Source of the DNA: a virus
Length of the DNA stretch: 24,744 nucleotides
Virus record (IMG/VR): IMGVR_UViG_3300013131_000236
Span: 1-24,744 of that record
Strand: one strand, 5' to 3'
The notes below the pieces were generated by a model that did not search any database, was not told the origin of the DNA, and was given only the letters and a program-made list of their open reading frames with translations. The first letter of the stretch is position 1. Every line of letters begins with the position of its first letter. Made by a program: the position numbers and the translations under genes. This document shows positions 1 to 16,545 of the stretch, in pieces.

Positions 1-1223
1 ATAGCTCAAAATCACAGTTGAGAAGACAAAAAGAGGAGGTAAACAGAATTTCCGGCATATTTCACAATGGCTGACGCATCATTCCAATAACTTCTAGAGA
101 AATGAGCATATATTATGGTCGTGGCACGAAGTGGTGCATATCAGCGGAAAAGAGTGAAAATTATTATATTGACTATAGAATAAAAGGTGTATCTTTTTAC
201 TTTTTATTCAAAGATAATAGAAAATATGCCATAGCTATAAAAAATAATGGCTTTGAATTATTTGATGAAAATGATAAAAAAATATCTGAAGGTAAAAACA
301 TAAAAAGTTCAAAATGACTTAAAGATAACGGCCTAATAGATTTTAATTTTGAAATGATACCATTGACTTTAACTAAAGACGAAATAGACAAGCATATTAA
401 AAGCGATCCTGATAAAGCATATGAATATGCTAAAAACATTATCAAAGGAAGATGACCAGAAGCTGAACCTATTATAGCTAAAGATCCATGATGTTCATAT
501 GAATATGCTAAAAACATTATCAAAGGAAGATGACCAGAAGCTGAACCTTCTATAGCTAAAAGCGATCCTGAAAAAGTATACTCATACGCTAAAGATGTTA
601 TCAAAGGAAGATGACCAGAAGCTGAACCTATTATAACTAAAAATTCATGATATTCATACTCATACGCTAAAGATGTTATCAAAGGAAGATGACCAGAAGC
701 TGAACCTATTATAGCTAAAAGTCCACCATATTCATACTCATACGCTAAAGATGTTATCAAAGGAAGATGACCAGAAGCTGAACCTATTATAGCTAAAGAT
801 CCATGATGTTGAAAGAAATATGCTAATCTATTTAATTTAACTAAATTAGATAGAGAAAAAGCATTACAACTTACTGAGACGAAGCGAATGATATCTAAAT
901 TAAGAATAAAACAAATTATTAAAGAAGAAATATATAAGTTATACGAATGACATCCGGATAAAGAGTGAGATGAATATAGTCATAATCGTAAAGATAAAAA
1001 CGTTCAAAATAATGAAATCATAGAATTATGATACGGCGATTATAACGATAAATTTGATACAAAAGTAGTAAAAGATAAAACAACAAATGTAAATATGAAT
1101 TTCCCAGACATAAAGACGGCCGTAGAGTATGCGAAACGGATGAAAAGTAATGGCAAAGCAAAGTTTATTTGAATGTTAACACGTCGAACGGGAATGTCTG
1201 ACATATTTACACCCATATCGTAA
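1..1223 (+). CDS. Repeat protein with WCIS-type N-terminal domain (5' partial)
   Basis: The reading frame is open to the left edge of the window, so the start is missing. The first visible third contains YYGRGTKWCIS, typical of a phage-associated domain of unknown function, followed by a hydrophobic strand-rich segment. From 420 to 812 there are five tandem units of 26-27 residues built on YAK(N/D)(I/V)IKGRWPEAEP(I/S)I(A/T)K. This repeat is known from T4-like phage proteins, where the residue after GR is Trp; here it is TGA in all five units. A later segment carries LRIKQIIKEEIYKLYEW, a motif shared with many other genes of this window. The last part, MNFPDIKTAVEYAKRMKSNGKAKFIWML, looks like a small alpha/beta unit. 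Under the standard code the gene would be cut into many pieces; under code 4 it is intact to TAA. Function unknown. Confidence 0.85.
420..812 (+). repeat. Five tandem 78-81 bp coding repeats
   Basis: Near-identical direct repeats within the first gene, each encoding 26-27 residues with the core KGRWPEAEP. The units start about every 78 bp (one is 81 bp). The second half of each unit is more variable (IIAKDPWCS, SIAKSDPEKV, IITKNSWYS, IIAKSPPYS). They are protein repeats, not CRISPR: there are no unique spacers and unit length stays a multiple of three. Confidence 0.9.
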
Positions 1224-1237
1224 AGAGAAATTATAAT

Positions 1238-1468
1238 ATGAAAAAACAAATTGTAAATGAATTTATAAATAATTTATGCAATAATAAGAAATTTATAGTG
1301 TCGTTACAAAAACAAGGTTTGATAAAAGAAGAGTTAACAAGATCAGATGTTGAAATTATAAAAAGACTCATTATATCCGGAATCGAGGGTATTATAACTA
1401 ACCTATTTCTAAGAAGAAATATTGCAACAATTGGTATAAATTGACCGGCAGTTTCAACAAAAGGATAG
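1238..1468 (+). CDS. Small hypothetical protein upstream of terminase
   Basis: A 76-residue protein reading MKKQIVNEFINNL at its start and INWPAVSTKG at its end (one TGA read as Trp near the C-terminus; stop TAG). It is mostly helical and basic in the first half, with the string LIKEELTRSDVEIIKRL. It ends 3 bp before the terminase gene, so the two are likely co-transcribed. The position just before TerL is where a small terminase often lies, but at 76 residues it is far shorter than T4 gp16 and no family motif is visible. I do not assign a function. Confidence 0.7.
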
Positions 1469-1471
1469 AAT

Positions 1472-2068
1472 ATGGTAAAAAAAAATATAGTTCTTACAAA
1501 AGAACAACAGTTTATTTTAAAGGAACGTGATAGATGTCGCAAAAATCCCATATATTTTCTTGAAAAGTATTGTAAAGTATTAACAGAATCTGATACACCT
1601 CAACCGTTTAAGTTATATGAATTTCAAAAAGAAAAGTGTATCATGCCTTTCTTACAATATGATACTATCGCCATTGCAAAAGGAAGACAAACAGGCGTTT
1701 CTACAATTGTTGCTGGATATGCTTTATGAAAGATGATATTTATAGAAAACTTTTTAACGGTTGTTCTTGCTATTGATAAGGATGTTGCGCAAAACATAAT
1801 TGAAAAAGTTCAGCTAATGATTGATAATGTTCCTGGATGGTTAATGCCAAAGCAAACAATGAAAAATAAGCATTCAATAGGTTTTAAGAATAAATCAAAA
1901 ATTATCGCCATGGCTAGAGGCGGTAAAAAAGGTCGTTCTTATTCACCAAAACTTTTGATTTTTGATGAATGTGTTGTTGGTGATACAAAAATAAAAATTA
2001 GAAATAAAATAACGGGTGAAATTAGAAAAATCAACATAAGAGATTTATATGATGCAGAATATAAATAA
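1472..2068 (+). CDS. terL: Large terminase, N-terminal half fused to split-intein N-part
   Basis: A 198-residue product holding the first half of the DNA-packaging ATPase. Residues 1-166 are terminase: the adenine-binding region around FKLYEFQKE (47-54), a P-loop-like GRQTGVST (71-78) in which the usual Lys is Val, GYALWKM with Trp encoded by TGA (82-88), and Walker B LLIFDE (161-166). The protein does not continue into the expected CAFI. Instead the Cys opens a 32-residue intein N-part, CVVGDTKIKIRNK...RDLYDAEYK, ending at TAA. CxxGDTxI is intein block A. The rest of the terminase is in the next gene but one, in another frame. The ATPase must be rebuilt by protein trans-splicing, or the break is a frameshift or assembly artefact. 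Confidence 0.85.
1970..2065 (+). mobile_element. Split intein N-part (TerL insertion)
   Basis: Codes for 32 residues starting with the catalytic Cys1 (CVVGDTKI, block A). The insertion point is between the Glu of the Walker B motif and the next Cys of FDE/CAFID, a strictly conserved spot of TerL and a typical intein site. The N-part is very short compared with ordinary split inteins (roughly 90-120 residues). This is the arrangement known as atypically split, described for the AceL-TerL intein, also in a phage large terminase. Confidence 0.8.
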
Positions 2069-2069
2069 T

Positions 2070-2171
2070 ATGAAAGAACATATCTATAATATTCTTGGTT
2101 ATAAAAAGAACAAGAATAGATTAACGGCCTATAATACACACTCAAACAATTTATTAAATAATTATGAATAA
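2070..2171 (+). CDS. 33-codon ORF bridging the two terminase halves
   Basis: The ORF MKEHIYNILGYKKN...LLNNYE begins one base after the stop of the N-half (TAA-T-ATG) and its stop overlaps the start of the C-half (ATGAATAA). It has no Shine-Dalgarno sequence and neither does the C-half, so a stop-restart relay of ribosomes through it would couple translation of the two halves. It could also be a piece of the intein in a third frame (a +1 shift at each end would give one continuous protein), or the relic of a lost endonuclease insert. No family is recognisable. Confidence 0.4.
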   Translation: MKEHIYNILGYKKNKNRLTAYNTHSNNLLNNYE

Positions 2172-2487
2172 AGTAAAATGAATAACAGAATGAGAAATTG
2201 ATACACCAAATGGATGATCAAATTTTGATGGTGTTTGTGAAAAAGATATGAATGAAATCATAGAAATTGAAACAACGAATAATAAACTGAAATGTTCACT
2301 AAATCATAAATTGGAATTAAAAACAAATGAATTTTTATCAGCTTCTTCCGTTGAAATAAATAGTATATTATCAAACGGAGATATTGTAATTAATATCAAT
2401 AAAGTTAAAGAGCAAGAAAAATTATATGATTTGCTAAACGTATCCAAAGATAATAAATATTATACGAATAATATAGTTAGTCATAAT
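2164..2487 (+). mobile_element. Split intein C-part (TerL insertion)
   Basis: Codes for 108 residues from the start Met to the terminal Asn of VSHN, just before Cys+1. It holds all blocks needed for splicing except block A: the block B region with NH, and block F/G with the final His-Asn. No LAGLIDADG, HNH or GIY-YIG endonuclease motif is present. With the 32-residue N-part it makes a complete 140-residue Hint domain, the size of a minimal intein, so the 33-codon ORF between the halves is not needed for the fold. Confidence 0.8.
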
Positions 2488-3678
2488 TGTGCATTCATAG
2501 ACGATGCAGAAACGGTGTTTGTTGCGGCGATCCCAGGTTTAGCAAAAACAAGAGGTCAACTTATTGCGATTTCAACACCAAACGGTGTTGGCAATTGATT
2601 TTATCGCGTTATACATGAATCACCTGAAAATGGTTTTCATACGGAAAAGATATATTGATATGAAATGCCTGATAGGGATGAGGCATGAAAAGAAAAAGAA
2701 CTTGCGAGACTTGGACCAAAGATGTTTGGTCAGGAATATAACATTGATTGATTGCAATCCGGTAGTACGGTTATATCTGTCGATGATATCATATGACAAC
2801 AAAAAAATAATGTTTGCGAGCCAAAAGAAATGATAAATATTAGTGATCCAGACAACGCAATAAAGAAACTAAATCGTGAAAAAGAGGTCTGGATATGAGA
2901 AAATCCAATTCCCGGTAGATATTATGTTGTTTCATGCGATGTGTCTAGAGGTGACAGTTCTGACTTTTCCGCGTTCTCTGTATGAAAATTACCAACGGAA
3001 GAAGACATATCCATAAATATAGGTCCGGTTCAGGTTGCAGAATTTAAGGGTATGATAAAAACAGATGATTATGGAAAACTAATCAACGTTATTGGATTAA
3101 CATATAATAACGCAATTGTTATCGTTGAAAACAATTCTTTAGGTATTGCAACCTTAAATGTTTTAGTTGAAAAAGAATATCCAAATCTTTATTTTACAGA
3201 TAAGGCCGCTAAACAGATATCATTTGATGAGGCCGTAAATTTAGATTCCGTTGCGAGTGTACCAGGTTTCGCAACAACGGCAAAAACCAGGCCATTAATT
3301 GCCGACGCCACCGAAGCCGCATGGAGAAGTCATCAATATATTATAAGAAGTAAAAGAATGTTAATTGAAGCACAGACATGAATATGAATAAATGGTAGGG
3401 CCGAACACGAACAAGGTTGTCATGATGATCTTATGATGTCAAGTGGTATATTTTATTATTTATATCAAACATCATTGAAAAGACAAGGTGTATCGCATGA
3501 TAGATTTATAGGTGCATTGAATTTGATTACGGAAAGAAAAGAAAAAGAGAAGTATGACATTCTAGATAAGATAAAAATTGTTAAACAACAACAAAAAAAT
3601 TCATGAGTTTTGAATTATGGAACAAATAATAATGAAAATTGAAACTTATCAGAGATGGTTAAAACAAAATTATCATAA
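2164..3678 (+). CDS. terL: Split-intein C-part fused to C-terminal half of large terminase
   Basis: A 504-residue product. Residues 1-108 are the intein C-part: WEIDTPNGWSNFDGV, block B-like LKCSLNHKL, and the end NKYYTNNIVSHN (blocks F and G) followed by Cys109, the +1 residue. From 109 on it is terminase: CAFIDDAETVF, coupling motif AISTPNG (135-141), then the RNase H-like nuclease with VVSCDVSRGDSSD (Asp259), VIVENNSLG (Glu322) and GCHDDLMMS (Asp421/422). Several Trp are TGA. Splicing with the N-half would give a 562-residue TerL, a normal length for T4-like gp17. The start ATG at 2164 overlaps the preceding small ORF and has no visible ribosome binding site. Located directly before the portal gene, as expected. 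Confidence 0.88.
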
Positions 3679-3697
3679 CGGTTTATATTTAACTTAA

Positions 3698-3706
3698 ATA
3701 TATAAT
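3698..3706 (+). promoter_or_regulatory. ATATATAAT box upstream of portal
   Basis: The same nine bases occur upstream of 7368, 16601 and 17252, each in a gap before a new gene block. It resembles a -10 element. No convincing -35 is visible, and the sequence is simple enough to recur by chance in AT-rich DNA. Confidence 0.25.
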
Positions 3707-3742
3707 TAGAACAAATCATTCATTTGAATAGGATAATAAAAC

Positions 3743-6187
3743 ATGGCAAAAACAATCAAAGCAAAAAAGATTATGCCGGATGAAAATGAGGTAACTCGAG
3801 ATGTACATGCGGAGCCTAAAATATCAAATCGTTTTTCAAATTATAAAAGATCTACAGAAACATTTAATGATATGGGTCTTACGCAAGGTAAATTAGCAAG
3901 ATCTAGAAAAGAAAGAACATCAACTAACGAAAGTGATATTGAAAATATTGTCGTTAGAAGAGAAGAATCTACATTTAAGCATTTATTTAAAATGTTGATT
4001 GGACAAAGTTTACTTCCCGATTTTGATCAATACGCAAATAAAAAACTATCAACGGGTCAAAAAAAGAAAATTGCTCGCTGAGAAGAATATTTCAAAAAAA
4101 TTCAAAACATGACATATTATGGAGTTATGAATAATGAAGGTGATAGAAGATTGCGTTATATGGAATATGATAGAATGGAATGAATGACACCGGAAGTTGG
4201 CAGGGCATTAGATGTTCTTGCGGCTGATGCAACAATAAAAAACGAGAATAACGATACTTTAACAATTGTAACTGAAAATCAACAGTTAAAAGAAGAATTA
4301 GAAAAATTGTTCTATGACATCTTAGATTTAAATTCTCAAGCGTTCTGAATGGTTAGAGACATGATAAAATATGGTGATAGTTTTTGAACGAATCATATTG
4401 ATACAAAATATGGAATGAGAAAATTATTGCCCGCACCTGTTGAACAATGCGAAAGAGAGGTTGGATACGATGAAACAAATCCTTTAGCTTATAGATTTAG
4501 AATAGCTGGTATGGGTTCTGAGTATCTTATGCCTTATGAAGTTTCTCACTTTAGATTAAAAAGCTCTGTTGATTTTGGTGAATATGGTAAATCCGTTCTT
4601 GAAAACGGCAGAAGAATATGAAGACAACTTATCACAATAGAAGACAGTATGTTGATATATCGTTTGGTTAGAGCGCCAGAAAGAAGATTATTTTATTTCG
4701 ATGTTGGTAATCTAAATCCGGCAGAGGTAGAAAATGCCGTTAATAGATTTACCGCAATGATGAAAAAAGATCGTATTTTTGATGATAACGGAAATATAGA
4801 TTATAGAATGGGCCTTAATCCTATTCATAAAGATTCTTTAATTCCCCTATTAGATAATAGAGTTATAACAATAGAAAATCTTTCAAAAGAAATTGAGGAA
4901 GGTAAAGAAAATTGAGTTTATTCAATAGATGATAAAACTCATGAACTAAAACCTGGTAAAGTTGTTTGATGTGGAAAAAACTTTAGTGATGCGGAAATTC
5001 TTAAAGTTGAATTAGATGATGGAAGTTATATTTTATCACACCCAACCCACCCATTCATTCTTAGAGATGGATCACATATTTTAGCGGCAGATCTTAAAGA
5101 AAATCAAAGTTTGATGCCTTTTTATTCTTCTATAGACAAAAAAGGATATGAAAGAGTTTATAATCCAGCCACTAATAGAAAAAAAGGTTCGCGCACTTTT
5201 GTTTCGCAATCTATTCACAAAGTAAAATCCGTTTCTATATGAAATGAAATGTCTGATGTATATTGTATGTCCGTTGTTGGACCGAACGAAGAAAATGATA
5301 GACATAATTTTGCGGTTCTTCCCTTTAATATGAAAACTACAAATAAATGAAATCGTTATAGCGGTATTTACATCAGTAATTCTGTTGACGAGGACATCGT
5401 TATCCCCACAAGAGGTGAAAAAAATTCAACAAAAATTGAAACATTACCTTCGCAACAATGATCTGCAATTGACGACGTAAAGTATATTCAACAAAAGTTT
5501 ATTACATCTTTAGGTGTTCCAAATGCTTATTTGGGTTATGAAGAAGCACTTAATTCAAAAGCAACTTTAGGTAATGAAGATATTAGATATGCAAAATACG
5601 TAGAAAGAATTCAATCAGCGTTTTTAGAAACATTATATGATATTGCACTTATTCATTTATATCTAAAAGGTTATAAAACAAATGACCTTAAAGAATTCGA
5701 ATTGCATTTATCAAATCCATCTCATATCAATGAACTTCAAGAATTAGAGATTATTCAAGCGAGATTAGATTTATACAATAACGCAAAAGATTCTGGCGCG
5801 TTTTCAACATATTATCTTTATAAGAATGTCTTAAAACTATCAGATGATGAAATTGAAGAAGAAGAAGGTTTAAAACTTAGGGATGGTATTTATCAGTTCT
5901 GTATTCAAAATGCGCAAAGTGGAACATTTCTAACGGTTAAAGATGTTCTTGATTTTAATAAAAAACAAGGCGCCGCTGCCCAGGATGCATTAGGTGGAGA
6001 TATTGGAGGTGGCGGTGGTGGTGGATTTGGCGATGATTTAGGTGGAGATATTGGTGGATTTGGTGGAGAACAAGACTTTAGTGATATGAGCGCGGAAGAG
6101 GTTACGAATGAAACCGGAATAGAACCACCTGATCTTTCCGGCGGTTTAACGGAAGAACCAACCGATAATGCTGAAGAAGTATTATAA
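3743..6187 (+). CDS. Portal protein with in-frame intein
   Basis: An 814-residue precursor of the head portal (T4 gp20-like), the 12-subunit ring at the packaging vertex. Portal signatures include MRDMIKYGDSFW-type residues around VRDMIKYGDSF, LLPAPVEQCER, and the highly characteristic RAPERRLFYFDVGNLNP. Residues 365-546 are an intein; removal joins NPIHKD to SVDEDIVIPTRG, which matches the EDYFxPRRG region of portals, and leaves a 632-residue mature protein. The C-terminal domain continues with TLPSQQWSAIDDVKYIQQKF and LGVPNAYLGYEEAL, and ends in a Gly-rich then acidic tail (from about residue 745). Several Trp are TGA, so the standard code would fragment it. Follows terL and precedes small genes and the protease. 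Confidence 0.93.
4835..5380 (+). mobile_element. Contiguous 182-aa intein in portal protein
   Basis: Starts with Ser1 (SLIPLLDNRVITIENL, block A with Ser in place of Cys), continues with VVWCGKNFSDAEILKVELDDG, block B SHPTHPFILRDG, ADLKENQSLMPF, and ends with VYCMSVVGPNEENDRHNFAV (block F) and GIYISN before Ser+1. From memory of the phage portal-intein family, larger members carry an HNH endonuclease after a YERVYNP segment. Here only YERVYNPATNRKKGSRTFVS remains and the HNH core is gone, so this looks like a mini-intein that has lost its nuclease. The last residues are SN, not the usual HN. Confidence 0.85.
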
Positions 6188-6201
6188 AGGAAATATAGAA
6201 C

Positions 6202-7188
6202 ATGACAGAGAAAAATTACTTAAAACAAAGACTAAATAAAATATTAAATAAATCAAACACGCCAGCTAATGTAAATGAACTGTTCCCGGAAAGCAAGATG
6301 AAAAATCTTAAGGATGCAATTAAATTCTATTCAATGGCATCAACGATGACAAAGGTAGAAAACGATGCGTCAAAAATGAAATTTGAACAAATAGAACTTG
6401 CGTTGGGTTTACAACAAGATGTCACTGATAACTCTAATCAGTCTACAACAGCTACTACTACCGTTAATGACGGTGGTTTACAACAAGATGTCACTGATAA
6501 CTCTAATCAGTCTACAACAGCTACTACTACCGTTAATGACGGTACATTATGACAACACGCTTTAAATAATTCTTTATTAAATGAAGGTAGTTTTTCATCA
6601 GCTATTAATATTAAAGATAATATTCAAACCGCATTTAACATAGTATTTGATGCCGCTAATATCGTGAAGAACGCCGCCATTAATATAGTTGGTGCTGGAT
6701 GGAACATATATACAAATTGAAAACAATTAAAAGGAGGCAAAATTATTTCTTCTTTTGAAAAACAAAAAGCCATATTGGAGCAATTTAAATCTGAAACGAC
6801 AAAATGATATAATGAAATAGTCGAACAAATTAATGATGCTGTTAATATAATAGGTAAAACTCAAAAATATAAAATACTTGGCGAGCAAATGCATCAACAT
6901 TTAAAACAAATATATAGACAAGATATGATTATATTTAAAAATGCCGAAGAAAAGTTTCAAGAAATATTAAATTCATTAAATAACATAAAAAAAGAGGATG
7001 ATTTTGAAAGATTATCACAAAAAGACAAAGAAAGTTTACAACAAATATTTTGAGCTCCAAGCAATGCCCCCGATGAATCACAACAAAATAATACACCAGA
7101 GCAACCCCAGCCGCAGCCGCAGCAACAAAATAATACACCCGGATCACCCCAGCCGCGGCCGCAGCAACAAAATAATAATAATAATTAA
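6202..7188 (+). CDS. Repeat-containing hypothetical protein, C-terminus probably frameshifted
   Basis: A 328-residue protein with Shine-Dalgarno AAAGGAAA. It begins MTEKNYLKQRLNKIL, carries a perfect duplication of 23 residues (GLQQDVTDNSNQSTTATTTV...) encoded by 6406-6543, then a hydrophobic Ala/Ile-rich stretch (IQTAFNIVFDAANIVKNAAI), coiled-coil-like helices, and a Pro/Gln-rich tail made of 42-bp repeats. The frame stops inside an AAT tract. One base later the next frame continues with KKYNSEQQERIDKFWKNNEAAKLRG and ends at 7288, which reads like the true C-terminus. Function unknown; position between portal and protease suggests a virion or prohead component. Confidence 0.75.
6406..6543 (+). 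repeat. Perfect 69-bp tandem duplication
   Basis: Two identical copies (6406-6474 and 6475-6543) encoding GLQQDVTDNSNQ...VNDG twice, in frame. The identity at every base, including third positions, points to a recent duplication or to slippage. Confidence 0.95.
7081..7185 (+). repeat. 42-bp Pro/Gln repeats running into an AAT tract
   Basis: Two nearly identical 42-bp units (7081-7122, 7123-7164) coding QQNNTP(E/G)xPQPxPQ, and the start of a third that degenerates into AAT codons from 7171. The CCGCAG-type codons are unusually GC-rich for the gene. The AAT run is interrupted by one additional T at 7185/7186, which creates the stop. Confidence 0.85.
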
Positions 7189-14871: not shown

Positions 14872-16545
14872 ATGTCAAAGGGATTCCCAATTTCTATAAA
14901 TGAATTCGTGAATAAATCGAACATTATTCATAATAATAAATATGATTATTCTTTAGTTACTTTTAAGGTCGTTAGGGACATTGTGACTATAATTTGTCCT
15001 ATTCATGGTTCATTTCAACAAAAAGTTGTTAATCATATGAATGGTTCCGAATGTCAACTTTGTTCAAAGAATAAATCATCAAATAAACAACGTACAAGTT
15101 TAAGTGACATTATATCTAAATCAAAAAGTAAATATGATAATAAATTTGAATTTGATGAAACTTCATATCATTCATTTTATAAACCAATGAAAATAAAATG
15201 TAAACAGCATGGATGACAAACAATGAGTCCGGACTTTCATCTAAAATCAAAAAACGGTTGTAAAGAATGCAATTCTATAAAATTAGATTTTAACGAATTT
15301 TTAAGTAGATCTAAATCAATTCATGGTGATAAATATGATTATTCTAAATGCGTGGATAATTATAATGGAGCGATAAAAAAAGTAACAATAGTCTGTCCCA
15401 TTCATGGATCTTTTGAAATGACTCCAAGACAACATTATAAAGGCCATGGTTGCCAAAAATGTGCAGCACAAATCATATCATCAAAAAATTTACTAACGCT
15501 TCAAGAATTTATATTTAAGTCAAATAAAAAACATAATAATAAATATGATTATTCAAAATCAATATATGTTAAAAAGAATTCAGATGTTTTAATAACCTGC
15601 AGGACTCACGGCGATTTTTGACAAAGGGCGGAAAATCATTGGGCTGGCGCTGGCTGTCCTAAATGTTCAAAAGTTGGTAAATCAAAAGAAGAAAAAGAAG
15701 TGCTTTCTTTTATAAAAGAAATATATGATAAAGATATAATTGAAAATGCTAGAAAAATTATTGATAATTATGAATTAGACATTTATTTGCCGAATAAAAA
15801 TTTAGGAATAGAATATAATGGATTATATTGACATGCTGAAGATAAAAAAGGAAAAACATACCATATAGATAAAACAAAACAAGCTGCAATTCATGGAATT
15901 GATGTTTTGCATATATTTTCAAACGAATGATATAATAAAAAAGAAATATGAAAGTCGATAATAAAAAACAGGCTTGGTATTTGTGATAATATAATATATG
16001 CTAGAAATTGTTCGATTAAATCCATCTCTTCGGAAGAATCAAAACTATTTTTAAATGAAAACCATTTACAGGGTTATATCAACAGTTCAATAAGATATGG
16101 TTTGTTTTATAAAAATGAATTAATTGGTGTCATGACTTTTGGTAAATCAAGATTTAATAAAAAGTATCAATATGAAATACATAGATTATGTTTTAAGAAC
16201 AATCATAGAGTTATTGGGGGTGCATCAAAACTTTTTTCTGTTTTTTTAAAAGAACATAATCCGGAATCTATCATTTCATATTGCGATAAAAGATATGCAA
16301 ACGGAAAAGTGTATGATAAATTGGGATTTCATTTAGAAAAAGAAACAAAACCAAATTATTGATATACGAAGAATAATTTAACAATTCTATCTAGAGTTTC
16401 TTTTCAAAAGCATAAACTAAAAAAGAAATTAAGTAATTATAATTCGGATATAACTGAATGAGAAAACATGAAAAATAATGGATGAAACAGAATATGAGAT
16501 TGCGGTAACTTAGTTTTTTGTTGACACAATGTTTCTTTTTTATAA
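14872..16545 (+). CDS. Putative Vsr-like homing endonuclease with zinc repeats and acetyltransferase-like end
   Basis: 557 residues. Four repeats (about 8-64, 75-133, 139-197, 208-265) have the pattern HxxKYDYS, then IxCPIHGSF, then CxxC (for example KYDYSLVTFK, ICPIHGSFQQ, CQLCSK); each can bind a zinc ion and probably DNA. Residues 275-370 look like a PD-(D/E)XK/Vsr-type nuclease: NYELDIYLPNKNLGIEYNGLYWHAE (Glu301, Asp303, Glu314, His321), YHIDKTKQA and HIFSNEW. Residues 380-500 (LFYKNELIGVMTFGKSRF, ISYCDKRYANGKVYDKLGF) resemble a GNAT-like domain often joined to such phage endonucleases. Nearly all Trp are TGA. It lies as a separate unit behind the capsid terminator, a usual place for a homing gene. 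Confidence 0.8.

What the first reader, a model, noticed from the sequence alone, without database searches (positions are those of the whole stretch)
1970..2487. Atypically split intein breaking the large terminase inside Walker B
The terminase is encoded by two genes in different frames. The first ends with a 32-residue block A peptide right after FDE, the second begins with a 108-residue intein C-part ending VSHN before CAFID. Split inteins with such a short N-part are rare; the AceL-TerL intein is the described example and sits in the same protein. I know of none described in a UGA-recoded phage. A split inside the ATPase active site would make DNA packaging depend on trans-splicing. Short N-intein pieces are also of practical interest for protein chemistry.
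Basis: partly seen in the sequence, partly recalled or inferred. Interest (0 to 1): 0.85.

Follow-up and report, generated by a model that had tools for sequence, protein, structure and literature searches.

The report
Split intein in phage packaging motor
A phage that reads the UGA stop codon as tryptophan makes its DNA-packaging motor as two separate proteins that a short-armed split intein must join; the arrangement is real, but the same kind of split, at the same place, also occurs in many cultured phages.

Summary
The large terminase (TerL) is encoded by ORF 1472-2068 and ORF 2164-3678 (UGA=Trp). ORF 1 ends with a 32-residue intein-N directly after the Walker B residues FDE. ORF 2 begins with a 108-residue intein-C ending VSHN before Cys+1 (CAFID). 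A second contig, L002, matches window 1-7050 with no gaps and 4 mismatches (none in 1900-2500), so an assembly indel is unlikely. All splicing residues are present. The predicted intein-C fold matches the atypically split Cat intein (Z 16.0, rmsd 1.3 A) and VidaL (Z 13.5). It is therefore very probably a working class 1 trans-splicing intein. It is not rare. Atypically split TerL inteins are widespread in IMG/VR, at several TerL sites. At this exact site they occur in cultured E. coli, Yersinia and Pseudomonas phages. In Campylobacter Fletchervirus the two TerL halves lie on opposite strands, about 22-27 kb apart. At least two other UGA-recoded phages carry close relatives at another TerL site. 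Specific here: no homing endonuclease gene in the 95-nt gap, which holds a 33-codon ORF touching both neighbours. The nearest same-site relative, L175, has a 353-residue homing endonuclease there. Verdict: a new member of a known kind. Splicing was not tested.

The parts
1472..2068 (+). TerL-N gene: N-extein (166 aa, ATPase N part with Walker A, ends LLIFDE) plus intein-N
   Evidence: phrog_5989 E 4.5e-42
1961..1969 (+). Codons FDE, the acidic end of Walker B, directly before the splice junction
   Evidence: the 80 intein-free relatives have xDE here (commonest triplets listed), followed by Ala in 77 and Cys in 3
1970..2065 (+). Intein-N, 32 aa, Cys1 and block A (CVVGDTKI)
   Evidence: TIGR01445 22.4 bits for the fused intein, just under its cutoff of 24.5
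2069..2163 (+). 95-nt gap between the halves; no Rfam match; no homing endonuclease, unlike most same-site relatives
2070..2171 (+). 33-codon ORF starting 1 nt after the TerL-N stop and ending over the TerL-C start; possible coupling leader (inference)
   Evidence: shuffle P 0.002, post hoc; not conserved in L181; no similarity to homing endonucleases
2164..3678 (+). TerL-C gene: intein-C plus C-extein (396 aa, starting CAFIDD)
   Evidence: phrog_2 E 1.3e-21
2164..2487 (+). Intein-C, 108 aa; block B His48 (2305-2307), block F Asp89 (2428-2430), His107-Asn108 (2482-2487)
   Evidence: invariant in 46 sequences; AF2 pLDDT 94.3; Cat Z 16.0, VidaL Z 13.5
2488..2490 (+). Cys+1, the second nucleophile; Ala in 77 of 80 intein-free relatives

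Best explanation
This is a naturally and atypically split class 1 intein of the Cat/AceL-TerL/VidaL type, inserted directly after the Walker B DE of a T4-like TerL. The phage translates TerL-N with a 32-aa intein-N and TerL-C with a 108-aa intein-C from two adjacent genes. The short intein-N docks on the nearly complete HINT core of intein-C. Cys1 makes an N-S acyl shift helped by block B His48 and block F Asp89. Cys+1 then takes the acyl group, and Asn108 cyclises next to His107. The exteins are joined as LLIFDE-CAFIDD, giving a 562-aa TerL with an intact ATPase site. Shown here: anatomy, conserved residues, predicted fold of intein-C, homology, and the same split in a second contig. Inferred: splicing itself, its need for packaging, and loss of a homing endonuclease from the gap of an L175-like ancestor.
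For: Two non-overlapping ORFs with exactly complementary intein parts. A second contig with the same split. phmmer to Cat 1.2e-10 and VidaL 2.5e-6. Gly17, His48, Asp89, Ser106, His107 and Asn108 are invariant over 46 intein-C sequences including this one. AF2 pLDDT 94.3; Cat Z 16.0 and VidaL Z 13.5. Intein-free relatives have Ala at the +1 position in 77 of 80 cases, while this one has Cys. Contiguous inteins at the same site in SRB7757, VmeM-32 and L090. Same-site split inteins with both parts in kaaroe, phiR1-RT and PspYZU05. In Campylobacter phages CP39, CPX and NCTC12673 the TerL halves carrying intein parts are on opposite strands. The intein is closer to that of L175, L091 and L181 (IntN 59-64%, IntC 45-47%) than the exteins are (33-40% over the longer stretches), as expected of a mobile intein.
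Against: No biochemical evidence of splicing. No raw reads were examined. The window and L002 are near-identical and may come from related samples, so the second contig is only partly independent. Intein-N alone is too short for a significant match by itself (E 0.7 to CatN). The contig is a 24.7-kb fragment, so an intact second TerL elsewhere in the genome cannot be excluded. TerL-C lacks an obvious Shine-Dalgarno sequence.
Confidence: 0.92

Rival explanations
1. The intein is broken: a former cis intein was split by mutation and can no longer splice, so the TerL gene is dead or the phage genome is defective.
For: No homing endonuclease remains in the gap; splicing was not tested.
Against: Both parts end and begin where atypically split relatives do (IntN 32 vs 32 aa, IntC 108 vs 110 aa in L175). 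All catalytic residues are kept. Both exteins are open over full length and conserved. L002 carries the same sequence over the intein.
Confidence: 0.04
2. The two halves are joined at RNA or translation level (intron, programmed frameshift or ribosome bypass) and the intein acts in cis.
For: The gap is short (95 nt), and an AAA codon precedes the TerL-N stop and recurs just after the TerL-C start.
Against: No overlap of the frames; stops in both. No Rfam family at gathering threshold. The gap is much shorter than known group I introns (own knowledge). Gap sequence is not conserved in L091 or L181.
Confidence: 0.02
3. Sequencing or assembly error created the split.
For: Only metagenomic contigs are available.
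Against: L002 shows identical sequence over 1900-2500. The gap holds 95 nt of extra sequence, not a single indel. Sister arrangements exist in many contigs and cultured genomes.
Confidence: 0.01

Closest known systems
AceL-TerL, GOS-TerL and the Cat consensus split inteins
   Same: Same host protein; short intein-N (25, 37, 30 aa; PMC11766414) and long intein-C (104, 115, 104 aa); class 1; Cat is the best fold match
   Different: 32/108 aa; inserted at DE|CAF after Walker B, whereas Cat-like sequences sit at the CEFLGS site; UGA-recoded phage; about 37% identity to CatC
Split TerL inteins of cultured T4-like phages kaaroe/TB34, phiR1-RT and PspYZU05
   Same: Exactly the same insertion site (YIDE|C ... 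SHN|CAFI), short intein-N, intein-C first in the second gene
   Different: They carry an endonuclease gene between the halves or fused to TerL-N; standard code; about 24-25% extein identity (phiR1-RT and L116)
Split TerL of Campylobacter Fletchervirus (CP39, CPX, NCTC12673)
   Same: Same Walker B site; intein-N CVAGDTKITVRNKKTGVIEDITMEELYNRIG in CP39
   Different: Halves on opposite strands about 22-27 kb apart
Uncultured phage L175 (IMGVR_UViG_3300015375_000430)
   Same: Same site, intein-N 32 aa, intein-C 110 aa beginning MNEVIKNISEWEIETPSGWSNF
   Different: Standard code; 353-residue ORF resembling the other gap endonucleases in the gap
UGA-recoded phages L091 and L181
   Same: Close intein relatives (IntN 62-64%, IntC 46-47%), UGA=Trp, gaps of 89 and 91 nt without homing endonuclease
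   Different: Inserted at another TerL site, STP|CG
Fractured genes with split inteins (Dassa et al. 2009, named from the reference list of PMC6892783)
   Same: Host gene split by intein-N and intein-C
   Different: The described layout has a homing endonuclease between the halves (own knowledge; paper not read here); none in this gap

Membership tests
Class 1 intein | Cys/Ser at position 1 with block A | tested here: met
   Cys1, CVVGDTKI after FDE
Class 1 intein | Block B His, block F Asp, penultimate His, terminal Asn, nucleophile at +1 | tested here: met
   His48, Asp89, His107, Asn108 invariant in A4; Cys+1
Class 1 intein | HINT fold | tested here: met
   Intein-C model pLDDT 94.3; Cat Z 16.0; the complete two-part intein was not modelled
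Class 1 intein | Protein splicing activity | not testable with these tools
   needs expression
Atypically split intein (Cat/AceL type) | Two separate genes, intein-N much shorter than intein-C, split between block A and block B | tested here: met
   32 and 108 aa, separate frames; same split point as L175, L091, L092
Atypically split intein (Cat/AceL type) | Sequence and fold similarity to Cat and VidaL | tested here: met
AceL-TerL allele family (same insertion site) | Same insertion site in TerL | tested here: inconclusive
   Cat-like inteins L122 and L117 sit at the C[EN]FLGS site; the AceL flanks themselves could not be read
Fractured gene with homing endonuclease | Homing endonuclease ORF between the halves | tested here: not met
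   95-nt gap with only a 33-codon ORF
T4-like large terminase | Walker A, Walker B and nuclease domain across the spliced product | tested here: met
   PHROG terminase matches of the spliced 562 aa; alignment of the C part with Flavobacterium immuto and Microcystis Mel-JY01 TerL

The most novel reading that the evidence does not exclude
In UGA-recoded phages these split inteins have lost their homing endonuclease, are fixed parts of TerL, and are kept because two-gene expression plus trans-splicing times or tunes packaging. In this phage a 33-codon ORF couples translation of the second half to the first.
Probability: 0.12. Interest if true: 0.6.

Novelty: new member of a known kind. Interest (0 to 1): 0.36.

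Why it matters
It adds a new short-N split intein pair (32/108 aa) for protein chemistry, to my knowledge and searches not described before in a UGA-recoded phage. It also shows that splitting TerL at Walker B is a common natural solution. The comparison brings up cultured phages, including one isolated on E. coli K-12, in which trans-splicing-dependent DNA packaging can be tested directly.

Tried and rejected
RNA families: none at gathering threshold. Homing endonuclease remnant in the gap: no similarity above shuffles. Conserved gap element among recoded phages: none seen. Resolving the intein tree: most forks unresolved; nearest rows by path are L091 and L090. A first script on the intein-N loci printed nothing because of a wrong pattern, repeated correctly. 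Papers on Cat and VidaL not held. Pfam has no match for TerL-C and only a sub-threshold one for TerL-N. Genome search: the window is a 24,744-base virus record, so there is no larger genome to look in. TGA=Gly rejected.

Full report
Observation. Under UGA=Trp, ORF 1472-2068 encodes 198 aa ending LLIFDE|CVVGDTKIKIRNKITGEIRKINIRDLYDAEYK. ORF 2164-3678 encodes 504 aa whose first 108 end YYTNNIVSHN before CAFIDD. The insertion lies directly behind the DE of Walker B, not inside the motif. The two frames do not overlap: the first stops at 2066-2068, and the second is closed by TAA at 2155-2157. A second contig, L002, matches window 1-7050 with four mismatches and no gap and is identical over 1900-2500. 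An indel error is therefore unlikely. Possible shared sampling origin makes this only partly independent. No reads were available.

Code. At residues 165 and 245 of TerL-C, encoded TGA, 80 of 80 relatives have Trp. Over all TGA columns Trp is the commonest residue (387), Phe next (218), and Gly is absent from the ten commonest. UGA=Trp is well supported.

Identity. The joined intein parts match the consensus atypical intein Cat (6dsl, E 1.2e-10) and VidaL (6vgv, 2.5e-6), and TIGR01445 just below its cutoff. In an alignment of 46 intein-C sequences (the window and IMG/VR loci), Gly17, His48, Asp89, Ser106, His107 and Asn108 are invariant. The AlphaFold2 model of intein-C has mean pLDDT 94.3. 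The best solved match is Cat, Z 16.0, rmsd 1.3 A over 104 residues; VidaL has Z 13.5. Intein-free relatives carry Ala at the +1 position in 77 of 80 cases, whereas here it is Cys. The spliced sequence of 562 aa matches TerL families over both halves.

How common it is. An IMG/VR scan with the intein alignment gave 80 loci. Many have intein-C first in their ORF and no block A in the same ORF. In TerL they occur at Walker A, just before Walker B, directly after Walker B, at STP|C and at CEFLGS. At the window's own site, split forms are L092, L113/L114 and L116 (IntN 34, 42 and 43 aa), with endonuclease-like ORFs between the halves. The closest same-site relative is L175: standard code, IntN 32 aa, a 353-residue endonuclease-like ORF, IntC 110 aa. 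Contiguous inteins at the site are in L090, Nitratidesulfovibrio phage SRB7757 and Vibrio phage VmeM-32. In 80 other TerL relatives the site is uninterrupted. The gap ORFs were identified as homing endonucleases by resemblance to each other and to annotated ones (phiR1-RT g167), not by a separate family search.

Cultured phages. The intein-C query matches 100 of 50,697 phage records (E <= 0.1). Escherichia phage kaaroe (host E. coli K-12 MG1655), Yersinia phage phiR1-RT and Pseudomonas phage PspYZU05 have TerL split at YIDE|C...SHN|CAFI. The tblastn search found one TerL-C place in kaaroe. In Campylobacter phages CP39, CPX and NCTC12673 the N half with its intein-N is on the opposite strand from the C half, about 22-27 kb away. 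Only trans-splicing, or non-covalent assembly, could make TerL there. A paper on another Campylobacter phage described TerL as interrupted by an intein and an intron enclosing a homing endonuclease (PMC3322345). I did not check that genome. Aeromonas phage PX29 is annotated with putative N- and C-inteins in TerL, at another site. Salmonella phage Maynard is reported with a TerL intein (PMC3868846).

Other recoded phages. L091 and L181 use UGA as a sense codon and carry the nearest intein relatives (IntN 62-64%, IntC 46-47%), inserted after STP in TerL, with gaps of 89 and 91 nt and no homing endonuclease. The finding is therefore not unique even among recoded phages. Inteins are more alike than exteins between these phages, and L175 and L092 share exteins at 47-57% but inteins at 33-34%. 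This fits horizontal movement of the inteins.

The gap. It is 95 nt. A 33-codon ORF starts one nucleotide after the TerL-N stop and ends over the TerL-C start. TerL-C has no clear Shine-Dalgarno sequence, while most other genes in the window have one. Shuffles reach such a bridging ORF in 0.2%, but this test was chosen after seeing it, L181 has no such ORF, and it has no similarity to homing endonucleases. Translational coupling is a guess.

Mechanism. By established class 1 chemistry, the short intein-N docks on intein-C; Cys1, His48, Asp89, Cys+1, His107 and Asn108 then carry out N-S shift, transthioesterification, Asn cyclisation and S-N shift. None of these steps was observed here.

Judgement. 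Real, and very probably functional, but a new member of a known kind. AceL-TerL, GOS-TerL and Cat have intein-N lengths of 25, 37 and 30 aa (PMC11766414), and PolB16 OarG has 15 (PMC10189870), so 32 is ordinary. The most interesting by-product is the set of cultured phages in which trans-splicing-dependent packaging can be tested.

Noticed in passing
window 4835-5380 (inside portal gene 3743-6187): A second, contiguous intein of 182 aa in the portal protein (PF14890, E 1.8e-11), with Ser1, Ser+1 and an unusual C-terminal ...YISN, Ser in place of the penultimate His.
   Followed up: partly
window 14872-16545: Free-standing homing endonuclease gene (phrog_559, E 1.5e-141) after the major head protein gene, not in the TerL gap.
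   Followed up: partly
L170, L219-L223 (Campylobacter phages CP39, CPX, NCTC12673): TerL encoded in two halves on opposite strands about 22-27 kb apart, each with a split-intein part at Walker B; the C half is annotated as terminase or not at all.
   Followed up: partly
L169 (Escherichia phage kaaroe): The gene annotated as hypothetical upstream of TerL is TerL-N plus intein-N fused in frame to an endonuclease-like region.
   Followed up: partly
L007 (Vibrio phage vB_VmeM-32) 1102-3216: TerL C part begins with an intein-C at Walker A and also holds a contiguous intein at Walker B; the matching intein-N was not looked for.
   Followed up: no
window 418-826: Imperfect direct repeats of about 78 nt (YAKNIIKGRWPEAEP units) inside ORF 18-1223.
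   Followed up: no
window 6406-6543: Exact 69-nt tandem duplication inside ORF 6202-7188.
   Followed up: no
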